A stretch of DNA of 22,607 nucleotides. It comes from a virus. The translations under genes were made by a program, and so were the position numbers. The notes under the pieces were generated by a model. That model was not told the DNA's origin and did not search any database. It was given only the letters and a program-made list of their open reading frames with translations. Positions 1,545 through 13,292 of the stretch are shown piece by piece (within the stretch, counting starts at the first letter, position 1; each line of letters begins with the position of its first letter). The stretch lies in IMG/VR virus record IMGVR_UViG_3300023179_009545, positions 1-22,607 of that record; one strand, 5' to 3'.

Positions 1545-3044
1545 TCGGCAGCAGGATCTCTTGTAGCTTATCTTTCCGGAATTACCGAAGTCGACCCAAT
1601 AGAATATGATCTTCTCTTTGAAAGATTTCAAAATGCACAAAAGAAATCTTTTCCAGATATTGATTCTGATTTTTCAGATCCAAGTATAGTAAAAGAATAT
1701 ATTAAAAATAAATATGGAGAAGATAAAGTTGCCTCCATTTCTAATTGGTCAACTCTCTCTCCCAAGGTCGCAGTAAAAGATGTAGCCAGATCTCTGAGAC
1801 TTGGTGGTGATAAATCTACTGCATTTACCATAGCCAATGCTATTACTGCCGCTATGCCAGATGTTCCAAGCCTAGATGAAGCAATGGATATTTCTGATGA
1901 TGTTAAAAAATATATGAAGAAATATCCAGAATTGTACCAGTATACAAAAAAACTAGAGAGTTTAACTAGAAATTGGTCTGTGCATGCTGCCGGAGTCGTT
2001 ATTGGTGATAAACCCCTTTATGAAATGGTCCCATTAAGAGTGGACGAAAAAGAAGGTAAAGTAGTCACCCAATGGGAAAAGACTCGTTGTGAAGACAATG
2101 GTTTAATTAAAATGGACATTCTTGGAGTGCAAACTTTAACTACTATTGATGAAACATTCAAAATAATTGAAGAAACAACGGGCAAGAAATTAACTACTGC
2201 TGATATAGACTTTTCCGATAAAGAAGTCTACAAAATGATTGGTAGAGGAGAAACTGCTGGTGTCTTTCAGCTAGAGTCTTCTCTAACACCTCTTTGTATG
2301 AAGATTAAACCAAAAGATATTGAAGAGATTTCCGCCATTAATGCTCTAGGTCGTCCTTCTTGCCCTCCTGATCAGAGGGCTCAATATGTTAATCGTAAAT
2401 TAGGAAAAGAAAAAGTATCCTATAAACATCCCACTCTAGAAAGAGCCCAAAGAAAAACTTTTGGCATCACACTATATGAAGAGCAAATGATGATTATTGC
2501 TAAGGATTGTGCTGGATGGGATTTGAATCAAGCAGATGCTCTAAGAAAAATTACCAAACTTAAAGGCAAAGATGAAGATCTTTTGCTTAAAACTGAAGCA
2601 AGTTTTATCGCAGATTGCATGAGTTTTAGCAAAATGACTTATGAAGATGCTCGCAGAATCTGGAGGGAAGAGATAGAACCATTTAACTTATATGGTTTCA
2701 ACAAATCATTGACTTTTTCAGAGCTGGTGAGTATAATCCCGGTGGGAACTAATAATGGTTTATGGGAAAAGTTACAAATAAAAGATGTAAAGCCAGGTGA
2801 CTTAGTTAGATCTAGAGATGAATCAACCGGTAAGAATATTGTTGTCCCCGTTAAAGCAAATCATTATCACGGAAAACTAAAAGTATTTAAAATAAAATTG
2901 GATAGTGGAGAAGAGGTAACATGCACGATAAATCACAAATTCAGGACAACGGACGGGAGGATGCTACCACTACATCAGATCTTAAAGGAGGATCTGGAGA
3001 TCGTTGTGTCTGCGGAAAAACAAGTAAATCTTCAAGAGGCCTGA
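1440..3044 (+). CDS. dnaE: DNA polymerase III alpha, middle fragment flanked by two split-intein halves
   Basis: Three parts are seen in the 534 residues. Residues 1-35 are an intein C-fragment ending GIAVHN, residue 36 Ser is the first extein residue, and residues 423-534 are the N-fragment of a second intein. Residues 36-422 are the catalytic core of replicative polymerase DnaE, starting SAAGSLVAY, which normally follows GPGRG in intact DnaE. The active-site aspartates are visible as D73 and D75 in PDIDSDF and D226 in IKMDILG, matching D401, D403 and D555 of the E. coli enzyme. The PHP domain and the start of the palm are missing and must come from another gene. The start is TTG with TGGAG seven bases upstream; starting here gives a normal-length intein C-fragment. 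The protein should be inactive until ligated at both ends by trans-splicing. Confidence 0.93.
   Translation: MKLKSKKSFTYKGTVYDLTVENTHSYNIDGIAVHNSAAGSLVAYLSGITEVDPIEYDLLFERFQNAQKKSFPDIDSDFSDPSIVKEYIKNKYGEDKVASISNWSTLSPKVAVKDVARSLRLGGDKSTAFTIANAITAAMPDVPSLDEAMDISDDVKKYMKKYPELYQYTKKLESLTRNWSVHAAGVVIGDKPLYEMVPLRVDEKEGKVVTQWEKTRCEDNGLIKMDILGVQTLTTIDETFKIIEETTGKKLTTADIDFSDKEVYKMIGRGETAGVFQLESSLTPLCMKIKPKDIEEISAINALGRPSCPPDQRAQYVNRKLGKEKVSYKHPTLERAQRKTFGITLYEEQMMIIAKDCAGWDLNQADALRKITKLKGKDEDLLLKTEASFIADCMSFSKMTYEDARRIWREEIEPFNLYGFNKSLTFSELVSIIPVGTNNGLWEKLQIKDVKPGDLVRSRDESTGKNIVVPVKANHYHGKLKVFKIKLDSGEEVTCTINHKFRTTDGRMLPLHQILKEDLEIVVSAEKQVNLQEA
2706..3041 (+). other. Split intein 2, N-fragment (112 residues) in DnaE
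   Basis: It begins at Ser (residue 423) directly after GFNK of the polymerase; serine as intein residue 1 is less common than cysteine but functional in known inteins. Block A is SLTFSELVSIIPVG, followed by VKPGDLV and VPVKANHYHGKLKVFKIKL, and block B is CTINHKFRTTDGR with the T-x-x-H signature (T496, H499 of the fragment protein). The fragment stops about 35 residues after that histidine, the usual split position. Its partner is the 37-residue C-fragment at 3955-4065. Confidence 0.92.
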
Positions 3045-3967
3045 GGAAACACAAGGTTAGATGTAACATGTATCAGCAGTCTGCTTTATTAAATGGAGAT
3101 TTAATAAAGTGCGGACTATGTAGTTACACTTCGGCAAAATTAACAATACATGTCAAGAAAGAACATAATATTTCTCCAAAAGAGTACCGTAAAAAATACG
3201 GAAGCTTGGTTTGTGATAATTCAATAAAAAGATATTCTGCAATTGCAAAAAAAAATGGATCCTGGATAAAAAAAGCTAAAGAGTCTGGGCAGGATCTAAG
3301 CGAATATAAAGCAAAACTTTCCGAGTCTATTTCTAAGTCAATTATGTCAAATCCAGAAGAAAGAAAGCGTAGAGCAGAACTTCTTGGTAGTTTGAATAAA
3401 ACAGAGGCTTTTAGAAAGAAAGCTAGCGAAACTGCCAAGAAAACTTCTGCCAGAATTGATATCCAGCAGAGTAGAGCAGCTAATCTTAAAAAGTGGAGAA
3501 AACTCAATCCAGATAAATTCTTTAATCAATGCACTCTGGTAATGCATAAAAAATGGCAAAGTCTGCCGGAGAAGAAGCTATTTGAATTCTTTAAAACTAT
3601 TAGCGAAGACTTTGAAAGAAATAAACAAATTAAAAGTAATAAATATTTTTTGATTAATAAAACTAATTCAAAGCAAATAGATATTTTAAACAAAAAACAA
3701 AAAATAATAGCAGAGTTTGATGGAAAACAGCATTTTAGCCCCATCTTTGGAGAGGAAGTCCTCTTAAATATTAAGGAGAAAGACAAAGAACTTGATAGAT
3801 TTTGTATTGATAATAAATTTATTCTAATCAGAGTTTCTCAATCTTGTTTTATTTATCGTACTATTAATGATTTTTCAAACTCAGTAAAAGATGAAATTTT
3901 CAAAATTATAAAAAATAATATTCCTGGAAACTATTTTATAGGAGCAGAATACGAATGTCAAAAATAA
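2921..3967 (+). CDS. Homing endonuclease, zinc fingers plus Vsr-like nuclease domain
   Basis: This gene sits between the two halves of split intein 2, in a different frame. N-terminal residues 29-82 hold Cys/His clusters: C29, C31, H44, C48 and a C2H2-type set C64, C67, H77, H82, followed by ISPKEYRKKYG, a motif often seen after phage and bacterial zinc fingers. Residues 130-200 are basic and helical with NUMOD-like repeats (NPEERKRRAELLG). Residues 215-310 look like a Vsr-type PD-(D/E)xK nuclease: QIDIL, then AEFDGKQHF (E265, D267, K269, H271) and DKELDRFCIDNKFILIRVS. This matches the free-standing EDxHD/Vsr-like endonucleases described with fractured genes. The ATG follows GAGG at 2913 and overlaps the intein N-fragment by 124 bases; the end overlaps the next gene by 13. 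It would cut intein-free dnaE alleles to spread the insertion; that role is inferred. Confidence 0.82.
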   Translation: MHDKSQIQDNGREDATTTSDLKGGSGDRCVCGKTSKSSRGLRKHKVRCNMYQQSALLNGDLIKCGLCSYTSAKLTIHVKKEHNISPKEYRKKYGSLVCDNSIKRYSAIAKKNGSWIKKAKESGQDLSEYKAKLSESISKSIMSNPEERKRRAELLGSLNKTEAFRKKASETAKKTSARIDIQQSRAANLKKWRKLNPDKFFNQCTLVMHKKWQSLPEKKLFEFFKTISEDFERNKQIKSNKYFLINKTNSKQIDILNKKQKIIAEFDGKQHFSPIFGEEVLLNIKEKDKELDRFCIDNKFILIRVSQSCFIYRTINDFSNSVKDEIFKIIKNNIPGNYFIGAEYECQK

Positions 3968-4065
3968 TTTCATGTGAAGAGGTTGGAGAATTTGATACTT
4001 ATGATTTGGAAGTTGAGCATCCAGATCATCAGTATTATTTAGCAAATGGTATCCTGACCTCTAAC
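3955..4065 (+). other. Split intein 2, C-fragment (37 residues) in DnaE
   Basis: Block F is seen as TYDLEVEHPDHQYYLANG and block G as ILTSN, with terminal Asn and Ser as +1 extein residue. The residue before Asn is Ser where most inteins have His, a known tolerated variant. The fragment has its own ATG and ribosome site. Joining at K|S gives FNKSHSVSYS, the conserved DnaE sequence, which fixes both splice junctions. It differs strongly from the C-fragment at 1440-1544, as two inteins in one protein must to avoid cross-splicing. Confidence 0.92.
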
Positions 4066-11274: not shown

Positions 11275-12060
11275 ATGGCAAAAGCCGAAGAGAAATTAAT
11301 GTCAGAAAATGAAGCTTGGAAACATCTAGAGGATTTATTTGGATCAGATTCTGTTGTTAGACCAGACGAGGTTGTAAAGACTGATATAATTAAGACCACC
11401 ACTCCCTCCCTCGATAGGGCTCTCGGTGTTGGAGGATGGCCTCGTGGTAGGCTTATTCAGTTAGCTGGAGCGCCTAGCTCTGGAAAAACCCTCCTAGCCC
11501 TGCTAGCTATCGCAGAATGGCAGGCAGAACATCCAGAGAATTGTGCTGCATTTTTAGATGCAGAATTTACTTACAGTGCCGATTGGGCTGCAAAATTTGG
11601 AGTAGATAATGACAGAGTTTATCTTGTTAAGAGTAACGAGGCCTCCAAAATATTTGGAGGGCTAGTTGGAAAGGTAAAGAAAAATTCTGTTACTGGTAAG
11701 CTAACAAAAATTCCTGGTTTATTTGATATGATTGCTGAAGGACAGGTTATTTCATATGTTCACCCAGAGACAAAAAAGAAAATTAATTTAAATTGTGGAA
11801 GAATGGGAGTTATAGTACTTGATTCTATAGCCAACTTGCAAGTACCCCAGGAAATTGAGGCCGATGTCGGAAAATCTCTTATGGCAGCGGTAGCTAGATT
11901 TTTAACTGTTGAACTTAAAAAATTAACCCCTGGAATTGCCAAGGCAAATGTTGTAATGATTGGTATAAATCAAGTCCGTGTAGAGGTTGGAAAGATGTTT
12001 GGTGATCCAGAATGCGTTGATCCTTTTTCTACAGTTGTTAAAATAAGATATAAAGTGTAA
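11275..12060 (+). CDS. recA: RecA recombinase, N-terminal fragment ending in a 15-residue intein N-fragment
   Basis: Residues 1-246 are the RecA core: Walker A GAPSSGKT (65-72), catalytic region FLDAEF with E97, Walker B VIVLDS (179-184) and INQVRVEVGKMFGDPE (231-246), ending exactly where RecA continues with TTxGG. Residues 247-261 (CVDPFSTVVKIRYKV) do not fit RecA; they form block A of an intein with Cys1 at 247, after which the gene stops. The product is predicted to splice to the protein at 12453. Later residues resemble bacterial RecA more than T4 UvsX. An insertion around residues 135-175 (KKNSVTGKLTK...) lengthens the core relative to RecA. Start ATG with AGGAGA just upstream. Confidence 0.93.
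   Translation: MAKAEEKLMSENEAWKHLEDLFGSDSVVRPDEVVKTDIIKTTTPSLDRALGVGGWPRGRLIQLAGAPSSGKTLLALLAIAEWQAEHPENCAAFLDAEFTYSADWAAKFGVDNDRVYLVKSNEASKIFGGLVGKVKKNSVTGKLTKIPGLFDMIAEGQVISYVHPETKKKINLNCGRMGVIVLDSIANLQVPQEIEADVGKSLMAAVARFLTVELKKLTPGIAKANVVMIGINQVRVEVGKMFGDPECVDPFSTVVKIRYKV
12013..12057 (+). other. Split intein 3, very short N-fragment (15 residues) in RecA
   Basis: CVDPFSTVVKIRYKV starts with the nucleophile Cys and continues as intein block A, then meets a TAA. Block B, which contains the T-x-x-H motif and normally belongs to the N-fragment, is instead in the partner at 12453. This defines an atypical split, as described for metagenomic AceL-TerL and VidaL inteins, with nearly all of the fold in the C-fragment. 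Confidence 0.88.
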
Positions 12061-12076
12061 AATCTCCCGCCCCCTC

Positions 12077-12126
12077 CACCTCCTTTATCTTCTATTGATT
12101 ATCTTGAATAAAATACATGAGGTGGG
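12077..12126 (+). promoter_or_regulatory. Anti-SD-like stem masking a ribosome site between the recA halves
   Basis: CCACCTC (12076-12082) is complementary to GAGGTGG (12119-12125). The second arm is a ribosome site for ATG 12129, which opens a 12-codon frame ending at 12167. The first arm lies in CACCTCCTTT (12077-12086), which matches the 3' tail of bacterial 16S rRNA. Hidden ribosome sites are known to restrain homing endonuclease translation (for example I-TevI of T4), so this may be the leftover leader of the decayed endonuclease. Confidence 0.45.
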
Positions 12127-12210
12127 TAATGCAAAATTATAAAAATTATTTTATATTTAGTTATTAAATTAAAAATAATATTCCAAAATTTTCAATAAAA
12201 TCAAACTTAA

Positions 12211-12456
12211 CCTTATTTGAAATTAAAGAAAAATCATTTTTTAAAAAATGGCAAAAAGATATCAGCAGATCCAAGTATTTTTAATCATGATGATATTTTT
12301 TTTAAAAAAATGTCAGCCATGGAAATATGGAAAAGAGACGAAGATAGAATAAAAAAAATTAAAGACCTTGGATATAAAGTGTTTATATTTTGGGAGAACA
12401 CAATACACTTCGATCCGGAGTATATAAAGCAAACAATTTTAAGGAGTATTAAATGA
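12211..12456 (+). pseudogene. Remnant of a homing endonuclease between the recA halves
   Basis: The open stretch (possible TTG start at 12217, 79 residues) matches only the C-terminal end of Vsr-like phage endonucleases: SADPSIFNHDDIFF, then MSAMEIWKRDEDRIKKIKDLGYKVFIFWE. In that family the catalytic residues lie upstream and are missing here; the frame is closed by a TAA at 12208 and no ribosome site precedes the TTG. A short frame starting at 12129 with a good ribosome site may be what remains of the N-terminus. The stop overlaps the next ATG as ATGA, preserving the coupling of an intact arrangement. It is therefore read as a decayed counterpart of the intact endonuclease in dnaE; a small retained peptide cannot be excluded. 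Confidence 0.75.
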
Positions 12457-12827
12457 CTTATATTTATGAGGAAATAACATTGGCTGAATTATTCGAACGC
12501 TTTGCAGGTGAAGCTTCTTATAAGCAACCAAAAACAATCGATATTAGTGATATTGATTTAGAGATAGAGGGTTGGGACTTCGAGACAAATTCAAGTGTTT
12601 ATTCGAAAATAAATGCTCTTCTAATAAAAGAGCCTGTTAAAGAGCATTGGAAGCTTGGAGATTTACATGCAACATCTGGTCATTTAGTTTATGACTATAA
12701 TCTTGGAGCATACGTTAGGATGGATCAGCACAAGGATGCAGTAAAGATTGAGGAGCCAATGCTTGTTGTTGATTTATCTGTAGATAAAATTAAAAATTAT
12801 ATGGCAAATGGTCAACTAAATCACAAT
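12453..12827 (+). other. Split intein 3, long C-fragment (125 residues) in RecA
   Basis: It starts MTYIYEEITLAELFERF, the continuation of the strand left open by the 15-residue N-fragment. Block B is LHATSGHLVYD with T74 and H77, block F is MLVVDLSVDKIKNYMANG and block G is QLNHN, with penultimate His and terminal Asn; the +1 residue is Thr. With the N-fragment the intein totals about 140 residues, a mini-intein without an internal endonuclease. Confidence 0.9.
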
Positions 12828-13292
12828 ACCACCCCTGGAGGTAAGGCTTTAAAACATGCTTGCTCAATCATGGTGGAGGTAGGTTCTATGTCTGGTGTTG
12901 ATAATCTTATTCTAGATTCCAGAGAGGAAAAGCAGGGTCATAAAATTAGAGCAAAGATAACTAAAAATAAACTTGGCGCCCCATTCAAAGTGGCAGAATT
13001 TTTTGTAGATTTTAGATCCGGAGTTGTAAAAAAAGGAGAGGAGTTACTAGAACTTGGAGTTAAACTCAATCTTTTTGAAAGACCAAATAATAGAAGTTAT
13101 ATTATTAATGGAGAAAAACTTAACTCCAGAGATAATGCAATAGAGTATTGTGAATCTCATAAAAATGAATTAGAAATTTTTATTAGAGAGCACTACCTAT
13201 CTGGGTTGGATTCTTCTGATACAACAGATCTTCCTGAGGAAATAAAAACAGAAGATCCATTTAATGATGAAACCGAAGGAGAAGTAATATGA
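12453..13292 (+). CDS. recA: RecA recombinase, C-terminal fragment led by a 125-residue intein C-fragment
   Basis: Residues 1-125 are intein; residues 126-279 resume RecA at TTPGGKALKHACSIMVEV, then KITKNKLGAPFKVAEFFVDF, GEELLELGVKLNLFER and NAIEYCESHKNELEIFIREHYL, all in the RecA order. The last 30 residues are acidic (LPEEIKTEDPFNDETEGE), like RecA and phage recombinase tails that regulate DNA access. Joining E246 of the N-fragment to T126 here restores MFGDPE-TTPGG, which fixes the junctions. ATG 12453 has AAGGAG six bases upstream and overlaps the endonuclease remnant stop; the 3' end overlaps the next gene by four bases. Confidence 0.93.
   Translation: MTYIYEEITLAELFERFAGEASYKQPKTIDISDIDLEIEGWDFETNSSVYSKINALLIKEPVKEHWKLGDLHATSGHLVYDYNLGAYVRMDQHKDAVKIEEPMLVVDLSVDKIKNYMANGQLNHNTTPGGKALKHACSIMVEVGSMSGVDNLILDSREEKQGHKIRAKITKNKLGAPFKVAEFFVDFRSGVVKKGEELLELGVKLNLFERPNNRSYIINGEKLNSRDNAIEYCESHKNELEIFIREHYLSGLDSSDTTDLPEEIKTEDPFNDETEGEVI

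What the first reader, a model, noticed from the sequence alone, without database searches (positions are those of the whole stretch)
12013..12827. Atypical split intein in RecA with a 15-residue N-fragment
The RecA N-part ends CVDPFSTVVKIRYKV and stops; block B (TSGH) is in the 125-residue C-fragment. Joining restores GDPE-TTPGG exactly. Only a few natural inteins with such short N-fragments have been described (AceL-TerL, VidaL types), and this appears to be one of the shortest. Cys1 and +1 Thr form an uncommon nucleophile pair.
Basis: partly seen in the sequence, partly recalled or inferred. Interest (0 to 1): 0.88.

Follow-up and report, generated by a model that had tools for sequence, protein, structure and literature searches.

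The report
Split RecA rejoined by atypical intein
A phage's RecA gene is broken into two genes whose products carry the two unequal pieces (15 and 125 amino acids) of a self-splicing protein element that should stitch RecA back together; it is a new member of a known class, but its close relatives show the same element flipping between split and unsplit forms, some with even shorter pieces.

Summary
RecA-N (11275-12060) ends GDPE|CVDPFSTVVKIRYKV-stop. RecA-C (12453-13292) begins with a 125-residue C-fragment ending NGQLNHN|TTPGG. Five related viral contigs have uninterrupted recA (GNPE|DTPGG), and other relatives carry the same intein unsplit or split. An unsplit relative models as an intein fold (pLDDT 96), and the split lies in the turn after strand 2 (the 'S1' position). 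A frame error is excluded: the stop after KIRY(K)V recurs in divergent relatives. Splicing itself is not shown.

The interpretation needs trimming. Fifteen residues equals, but does not break, the published record (PolB16 OarG, 15 aa), and one relative has 11 aa. Cys1/Thr+1 is normal in this family.

The wider result is about 57 distinct RecA/UvsX inteins in which split and unsplit forms interconverted at least six times. Two pairs are near-identical inteins: L008/L009 (98.7% over 4.75 kb) and L069/L088 (intein about 98%, flanks about 76%). Filed as a new member of a known kind: an S1-type atypical split intein in a fractured gene.

The parts
11275..12012 (+). RecA N-extein (246 aa, ends ...VGKMFGDPE)
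   Evidence: Pfam RecA E 1.2e-38; 85-87% identical to uninterrupted RecA of L002-L006 over residues 1-246
12013..12057 (+). IntN, 15 aa CVDPFSTVVKIRYKV (Cys1, strands 1-2)
   Evidence: Aligned with unsplit intein L008 CVDPFSTKVKIRKD and split relative L059 CVDPFTTKVKIRYKV-stop, same length
12058..12060 (+). TAA stop ending RecA-N/IntN; position conserved in L059, L065, L114, L125, L130
12075..12126 (+). hairpin CCACCTCC...GAGGTGG pairing with the Shine-Dalgarno of the lost endonuclease gene (remnant ATG at 12129)
   Evidence: z -2.3 here; same element z -9.1 (L059), -4.9 (L065), -5.5 (L071), -10.5 (L109), -8.9 (L123)
12147..12200 (+). remnant of the N-terminus of the Vsr-like homing endonuclease, one internal stop
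   Evidence: tblastn with L059 HEG N-part, 72% over 18 aa, E 1e-4
12265..12438 (+). remnant of the C-terminus of the Vsr-like homing endonuclease; catalytic YPDF...IIECYGTYWH segment missing
   Evidence: 52% over 58 aa to L025 HEG, E 6e-18; DUF559 E 7.5e-4; phrog_22677 E 2.8e-9
12453..12827 (+). IntC, 125 aa: block B ATSGH, block F VVDLSVDKIKNY, block G ANGQLNHN
   Evidence: 54-59% identical to IntC of L009/L025 and to the L008 intein; AlphaFold2 model pLDDT 92, Foldseek best hits all inteins
12828..13289 (+). RecA C-extein (Thr+1, TTPGGKALKHAC...)
   Evidence: Pfam RecA E 8e-9; matches C-part of L002-L006 RecA

Best explanation
The phage recA gene was invaded, at the loop-2 coding site (E|TTPGG), by a mobile class 1 mini-intein that is split after its second beta strand. 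Two proteins are made: RecA-N carrying a 15-residue IntN, and a 125-residue IntC fused to RecA-C, each with its own start codon. IntN supplies Cys1 and docks on the preformed IntC, completing the HINT fold. Cys1 takes up the N-extein, Thr+1 attacks, Asn125 of IntC cyclises with the help of His124, and GDPE is joined to TTPGG. The gap between the halves is where a Vsr-type homing endonuclease gene sits in relatives. In this contig that gene is dead (internal deletion, stop), but the split was kept because RecA still needs trans-splicing. Shown: anatomy, homology, fold model, empty sites, HEG decay. Inferred: the splicing chemistry, the order of events, and that spliced RecA is functional.
For: Uninterrupted recA in 5 related contigs. 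The same intein unsplit in L008 and split in L009 and L059/L025. All catalytic residues conserved across 14 aligned members: block B His, block F Asp, HN. L008 intein modelled at pLDDT 96; the Foldseek hits ranked first are inteins or related Hint-fold domains. The IntC model alone also matches inteins. Strand 2 ends at residue 13 and strand 3 starts at 19, so the split lies in that turn. IntC under purifying selection in relatives, dN/dS 0.04-0.10 for L009/L008 and L009/L025. HEG remnants at both ends of the gap. 15-aa IntN recurs in at least nine members.
Against: No splicing activity measured. dS between the window and its nearest relatives is saturated, so selection on this very copy is not measured. 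The single-sequence Pfam intein match is weak (E 0.012). The usual block F histidine is Lys here (VDKIKNY), as in L008/L009. The contig is a 22.6-kb fragment, so a second intact recA elsewhere in the phage is not excluded.
Confidence: 0.9

Rival explanations
1. The two halves are a dead, truncated recA: the intein is a relic that no longer splices and the phage relies on the host RecA.
For: HEG in the gap is dead, so decay is under way at this locus; the N-extein just before the intein has drifted (VEVGKMFGDPE against VNPGQMFGNPE in relatives).
Against: Both ORFs intact with good Shine-Dalgarno sequences; all catalytic residues conserved after long divergence (54-59% identity to relatives); Thr+1 kept although empty-site relatives have Asp there; RecA-C intact.
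Confidence: 0.07
2. Sequencing or assembly error split an ordinary contiguous intein.
For: Unsplit alleles exist (L008, L058, L069).
Against: 392 bp with HEG remnants lie between the halves; IntC has its own start and Shine-Dalgarno; the same stop position and the same arrangement occur in independent contigs (L059/L025, L065, L114, L130).
Confidence: 0.01
3. A group I or II intron interrupts recA rather than an intein.
For: A group I intron does sit next to the intein site in L132.
Against: No Rfam match in the window; sequence beyond GDPE reads as conserved intein protein in both fragments and is fused in frame in L008.
Confidence: 0.01

Closest known systems
PolB16 OarG split intein (PMC10189870)
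   Same: IntN of exactly 15 aa, split after beta strand 2 (S1), found in metagenomic sequence
   Different: Ser1/Ser+1, inserted in a PolB DNA polymerase, IntC 168 aa; the window's is Cys1/Thr+1 in RecA with IntC 125 aa
VidaL split intein (Burton et al. 2020, cited in PMC13014065 and PMC10264447)
   Same: cysteine-dependent, S1 split, ultra-short IntN
   Different: sequence not available with the tools here, so homology to the RecA/UvsX family was not tested
AceL TerL and GOS TerL split inteins
   Same: naturally atypically split, short IntN
   Different: split after helix 1 (S2 position) according to PMC13014065; host gene is terminase
Fractured genes with split inteins and EDxHD/Vsr homing endonucleases (Dassa et al. 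2009, cited in PMC12350094)
   Same: phage gene broken into two ORFs by a split intein, with a Vsr-like endonuclease gene between the halves in relatives
   Different: in the window the endonuclease is a pseudogene; that paper's own text was not held, so its RecA/UvsX cases could not be checked
T4 homing endonuclease ribosome-site hairpins (I-TevI, segB, mobE; PMC2988022)
   Same: a hairpin hides the endonuclease's ribosome binding site
   Different: here it sits inside a fractured intein gene, directly after the IntN stop codon; function untested

Membership tests
class 1 intein (HINT domain) | nucleophile at position 1 (Cys/Ser) | tested here: met
   Cys1 at 12013, conserved in all members whose N-fragment was seen
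class 1 intein (HINT domain) | block B TxxH | tested here: met
   ATSGH; His invariant in 14 aligned members
class 1 intein (HINT domain) | penultimate His, terminal Asn, Cys/Ser/Thr at +1 | tested here: met
   HN|T
class 1 intein (HINT domain) | HINT fold | tested here: met
   AlphaFold2 model of unsplit relative L008, pLDDT 96; model of window IntC, pLDDT 92; Foldseek best hits inteins
class 1 intein (HINT domain) | precise insertion in a conserved host-protein site, empty site in relatives | tested here: met
   L002-L006 intact RecA
class 1 intein (HINT domain) | protein splicing | not testable with these tools
   needs expression
atypically split intein, S1 position | IntN about 15-37 aa, block B in the C-fragment | tested here: met
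   15 aa / 125 aa
atypically split intein, S1 position | split in the turn after strand 2 | tested here: met
   strand 2 = residues 8-13, strand 3 = 19-22 of the L008 model; IntN ends at residue 15
atypically split intein, S1 position | the fragments associate and trans-splice | not testable with these tools
   needs expression
fractured gene with Vsr/EDxHD homing endonuclease | endonuclease gene between the split halves | tested here: met
   full-length in L065 and L088, partial at contig ends in L009 and L059/L025, remnant in the window; L065 HEG matches PDB Vsr E 0.0017
fractured gene with Vsr/EDxHD homing endonuclease | intact nuclease catalytic residues | tested here: not met
   missing in the window copy, so this copy is not an active homing unit; the YPDF...IIECYGTxWHADP segment is present in L009, L025, L065
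VidaL lineage | sequence homology to VidaL IntN/IntC | not tested
   VidaL sequence not in any held paper text or structure

The most novel reading that the evidence does not exclude
The RecA/UvsX loop-2 inteins switch repeatedly and on a short time scale between a contiguous form and an S1-split form. The switch is driven by gain and loss of a homing endonuclease gene in the turn between strands 2 and 3, and the split state is kept after the endonuclease dies, because RecA depends on it or because making RecA in two pieces is useful to the phage. The window would be the 'dead endonuclease, split kept' stage.
Probability: 0.4. Interest if true: 0.75.

Novelty: new member of a known kind. Interest (0 to 1): 0.55.

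Why it matters
A 2025 study of intein aggregation used five atypically split inteins (PMC11923092). This family supplies about 30 more loci with both fragments visible, several with IntN of 15 aa or less, short enough for easy peptide synthesis and therefore useful for protein labelling. It also gives what the origin-of-split-inteins question lacked: near-identical alleles, one split and one contiguous (L008/L009, L069/L088), which make it testable whether splitting costs splicing speed and what the endonuclease has to do with it.

Tried and rejected
Direct database matches to the IntC failed: tblastn against 50,697 phage records, two other family members against the same records, phmmer against PDB, one genome-contig scan with the family alignment, and the single-protein scan of viral contigs. 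The family was reached only by searching DNA patterns for the splice junction and then an alignment. Intron explanation: no Rfam match in the window. Co-conversion of the recA flanks in the window: the 30-bp identity profile dips at 691-720 (53-63%) just before the insertion in comparison with all empty alleles, but also against L008 (63%), so it is not diagnostic. Looked for the RecA-N half of L009: its contig and that of L025 start inside the endonuclease gene, and no other contig was found for L009; for L025 it is L059, same sample, 114-nt identical overlap. dN/dS for the window copy: dS saturated. Counting split/contiguous changes: two labellings, each with some misassigned rows (L093, L079; L066, L095), gave 10 and 12 changes; both gave at least 6 forced by well-supported branches, and only this lower bound is used.

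Full report
The window is one whole IMG/VR viral contig of 22,607 bases, with GroEL, DNA polymerase III alpha (DnaE) and RecA matches. No cultured-phage record holds a RecA closer than about 34% identity.

Observation. RecA-N, ORF 11275-12060, ends ...GKMFGDPE-CVDPFSTVVKIRYKV-stop. RecA-C, ORF 12453-13292, starts with 125 residues ending ANGQLNHN and then reads TTPGGKALKHAC. Both have Shine-Dalgarno sequences (AGGAG before 11275, AAGGAG at 12441-12446). Five related viral contigs (85-87% identical over RecA 1-246) carry uninterrupted recA with GNPE|DTPGG. These are empty sites, and they fix the insertion to the residue.

It is an intein. Searching viral contigs for the C-terminal junction found L008, which has the same intein unsplit in the same RecA (GNPE|CVDPFSTKVKIRKDGNLDELLTVNELFERF...NGQLNHN|TTPGG), and several split copies. 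In 14 aligned members the block B His, block F Asp and terminal His-Asn are invariant. AlphaFold2 models the L008 intein at mean pLDDT 96 and the window IntC at 92. Foldseek's best matches in PDB are all inteins, among them the engineered atypically split 'Cat' intein 6dsl for the IntC. In the L008 model strand 2 is residues 8-13 and strand 3 is 19-22, so the window's split after residue 15 lies in that turn. PMC13014065 calls this the S1 position, known from VidaL and PolB16.

How short is short. Published natural atypical IntN are 15-37 aa (PMC13014065), and PolB16 OarG with 15 aa is called the shortest characterised (PMC10189870). The window's 15 aa ties that. A survey of relatives shows IntN of 15 aa in L059, L065, L071, L086, L114, L118, L125 and L130, 14 aa in L081, and 11 aa in L024 (GNPE|CVAPETLIDID-stop, read directly), with tails up to 41 aa in others. 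The stop codon in the window is therefore real and recurrent, and the Cys1/Thr+1 pair is the family's norm.

What lies between the halves. The 392 bases hold remnants of both ends of a Vsr-like homing endonuclease: 12147-12200 (72% over 18 aa, with a stop; E 1e-4) and 12265-12438 (52% over 58 aa; E 6e-18). The middle, with the YPDF...IIECYGTYWH segment, is gone. Endonucleases retaining that segment sit at the same place in L009, L025/L059 and L065, and a related full-length one in L088; the L065 one matches E. coli Vsr in PDB (E 0.0017). In the 11-aa case L024 the endonuclease is of another family (phrog_314 homing endonuclease, E 2.8e-38). In several relatives a strong hairpin directly after the IntN stop pairs with the endonuclease's Shine-Dalgarno: z -9.1 L059, -4.9 L065, -5.5 L071, -10.5 L109, -8.9 L123. 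The window keeps a weaker version (z -2.3; CCACCTCC/GAGGTGG at 12075-12126). Other split loci show none (L089, L110, L118, L082). Such hairpins are known to repress T4 homing endonucleases (PMC2988022).

Split and unsplit. An alignment search gave 75 viral loci, about 57 distinct, 12 or more of them contiguous. On the intein tree the state changes at least six times on well-supported branches. Two pairs are close. L008 (unsplit) and L009 (split, with endonuclease) are 98.7% identical over 4,753 bases starting at the junction, with dN/dS 0.04 for the shared intein part. The L008 linker KDGNLDE is absent from L009, which argues against an assembly artefact. L069 (unsplit) and L088 (split, with endonuclease) share about 98% identical intein DNA while the flanks are about 76% identical, so the intein moved between phages and changed form. 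Direction of change is not known. Both forms of the same intein appear to be maintained, and in the window the split has outlived the endonuclease.

Mechanism, with status. Shown: anatomy, homology, fold, empty sites, endonuclease decay. Established chemistry applied here: Cys1 acyl shift, transfer to Thr+1, Asn cyclisation. Inferred: the fragments meet and splice, and ligated RecA works. Dassa et al. 2009 was not held, so whether it already listed UvsX or RecA members could not be checked.

Verdict: a real, probably active atypical split intein, a new member of a known kind.

Noticed in passing
window:1440-1544 and 2706-4065: DnaE in the same contig has two further split inteins: an IntC (35 aa, ...GIAVHN|SAAGSLV) at 1440-1544, and IntN 2706-3041 (Ser1, 112 aa) with IntC 3955-4065 ending LTSN|SHS (Ser+1, penultimate Ser instead of His, non-catalytic Cys at IntN 73 and IntC 7): a canonical-site split intein using only serine nucleophiles.
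   Followed up: partly
window:2921-3967: ORF between the DnaE intein halves, overlapping both, with zinc-finger-like and endonuclease-like stretches (EFDGKQHF); Pfam only weak (ROS_MUCR E 0.0012), phrog_22215 of unknown function.
   Followed up: no
L024:2404-3348: RecA split intein with an 11-residue IntN (CVAPETLIDID), shorter than any characterised natural IntN in the papers read, with a homing endonuclease (phrog_314) in the gap.
   Followed up: partly
L008 and L009; L069 and L088: Near-identical inteins in split and unsplit form: first pair in almost the same phage, second pair moved between phages whose flanks are only about 76% identical.
   Followed up: yes
L010, L011, L014, L107, L120, L121, L128, L131, L132: After the intein the C-extein has only 6-16 residues (TTPGG/TTSGG plus a short tail) and stops: a second interruption right beside the intein. 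In L132 Rfam finds a group I intron (RF00028, 3366-3781); in the others sampled none reached threshold.
   Followed up: partly
L059:6335-6390 (reverse complement), L065:1900-1955, L071, L109, L123: Stable hairpin between IntN stop and endonuclease start hiding its Shine-Dalgarno, resembling T4 homing-endonuclease control; sequences differ while pairing is kept.
   Followed up: partly
L085:upstream of 3351: Endonuclease-like sequence and IntC appear to be one 457-residue open frame, i.e. an endonuclease fused at the S1 split site.
   Followed up: no
window:3-1181: Protein with about nine repeats of the type EKDPIYFLKNFSEKDWVQPYLETARKSAA; no informative family match.
   Followed up: no
L023: RecA/UvsX with two contiguous inteins, one before the P-loop (LHHN|SGKS) and one at loop 2; L071, L095 and L110 also show a second intein C-terminus (LSHN|T or VSHN|T) just before the loop-2 site.
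   Followed up: no
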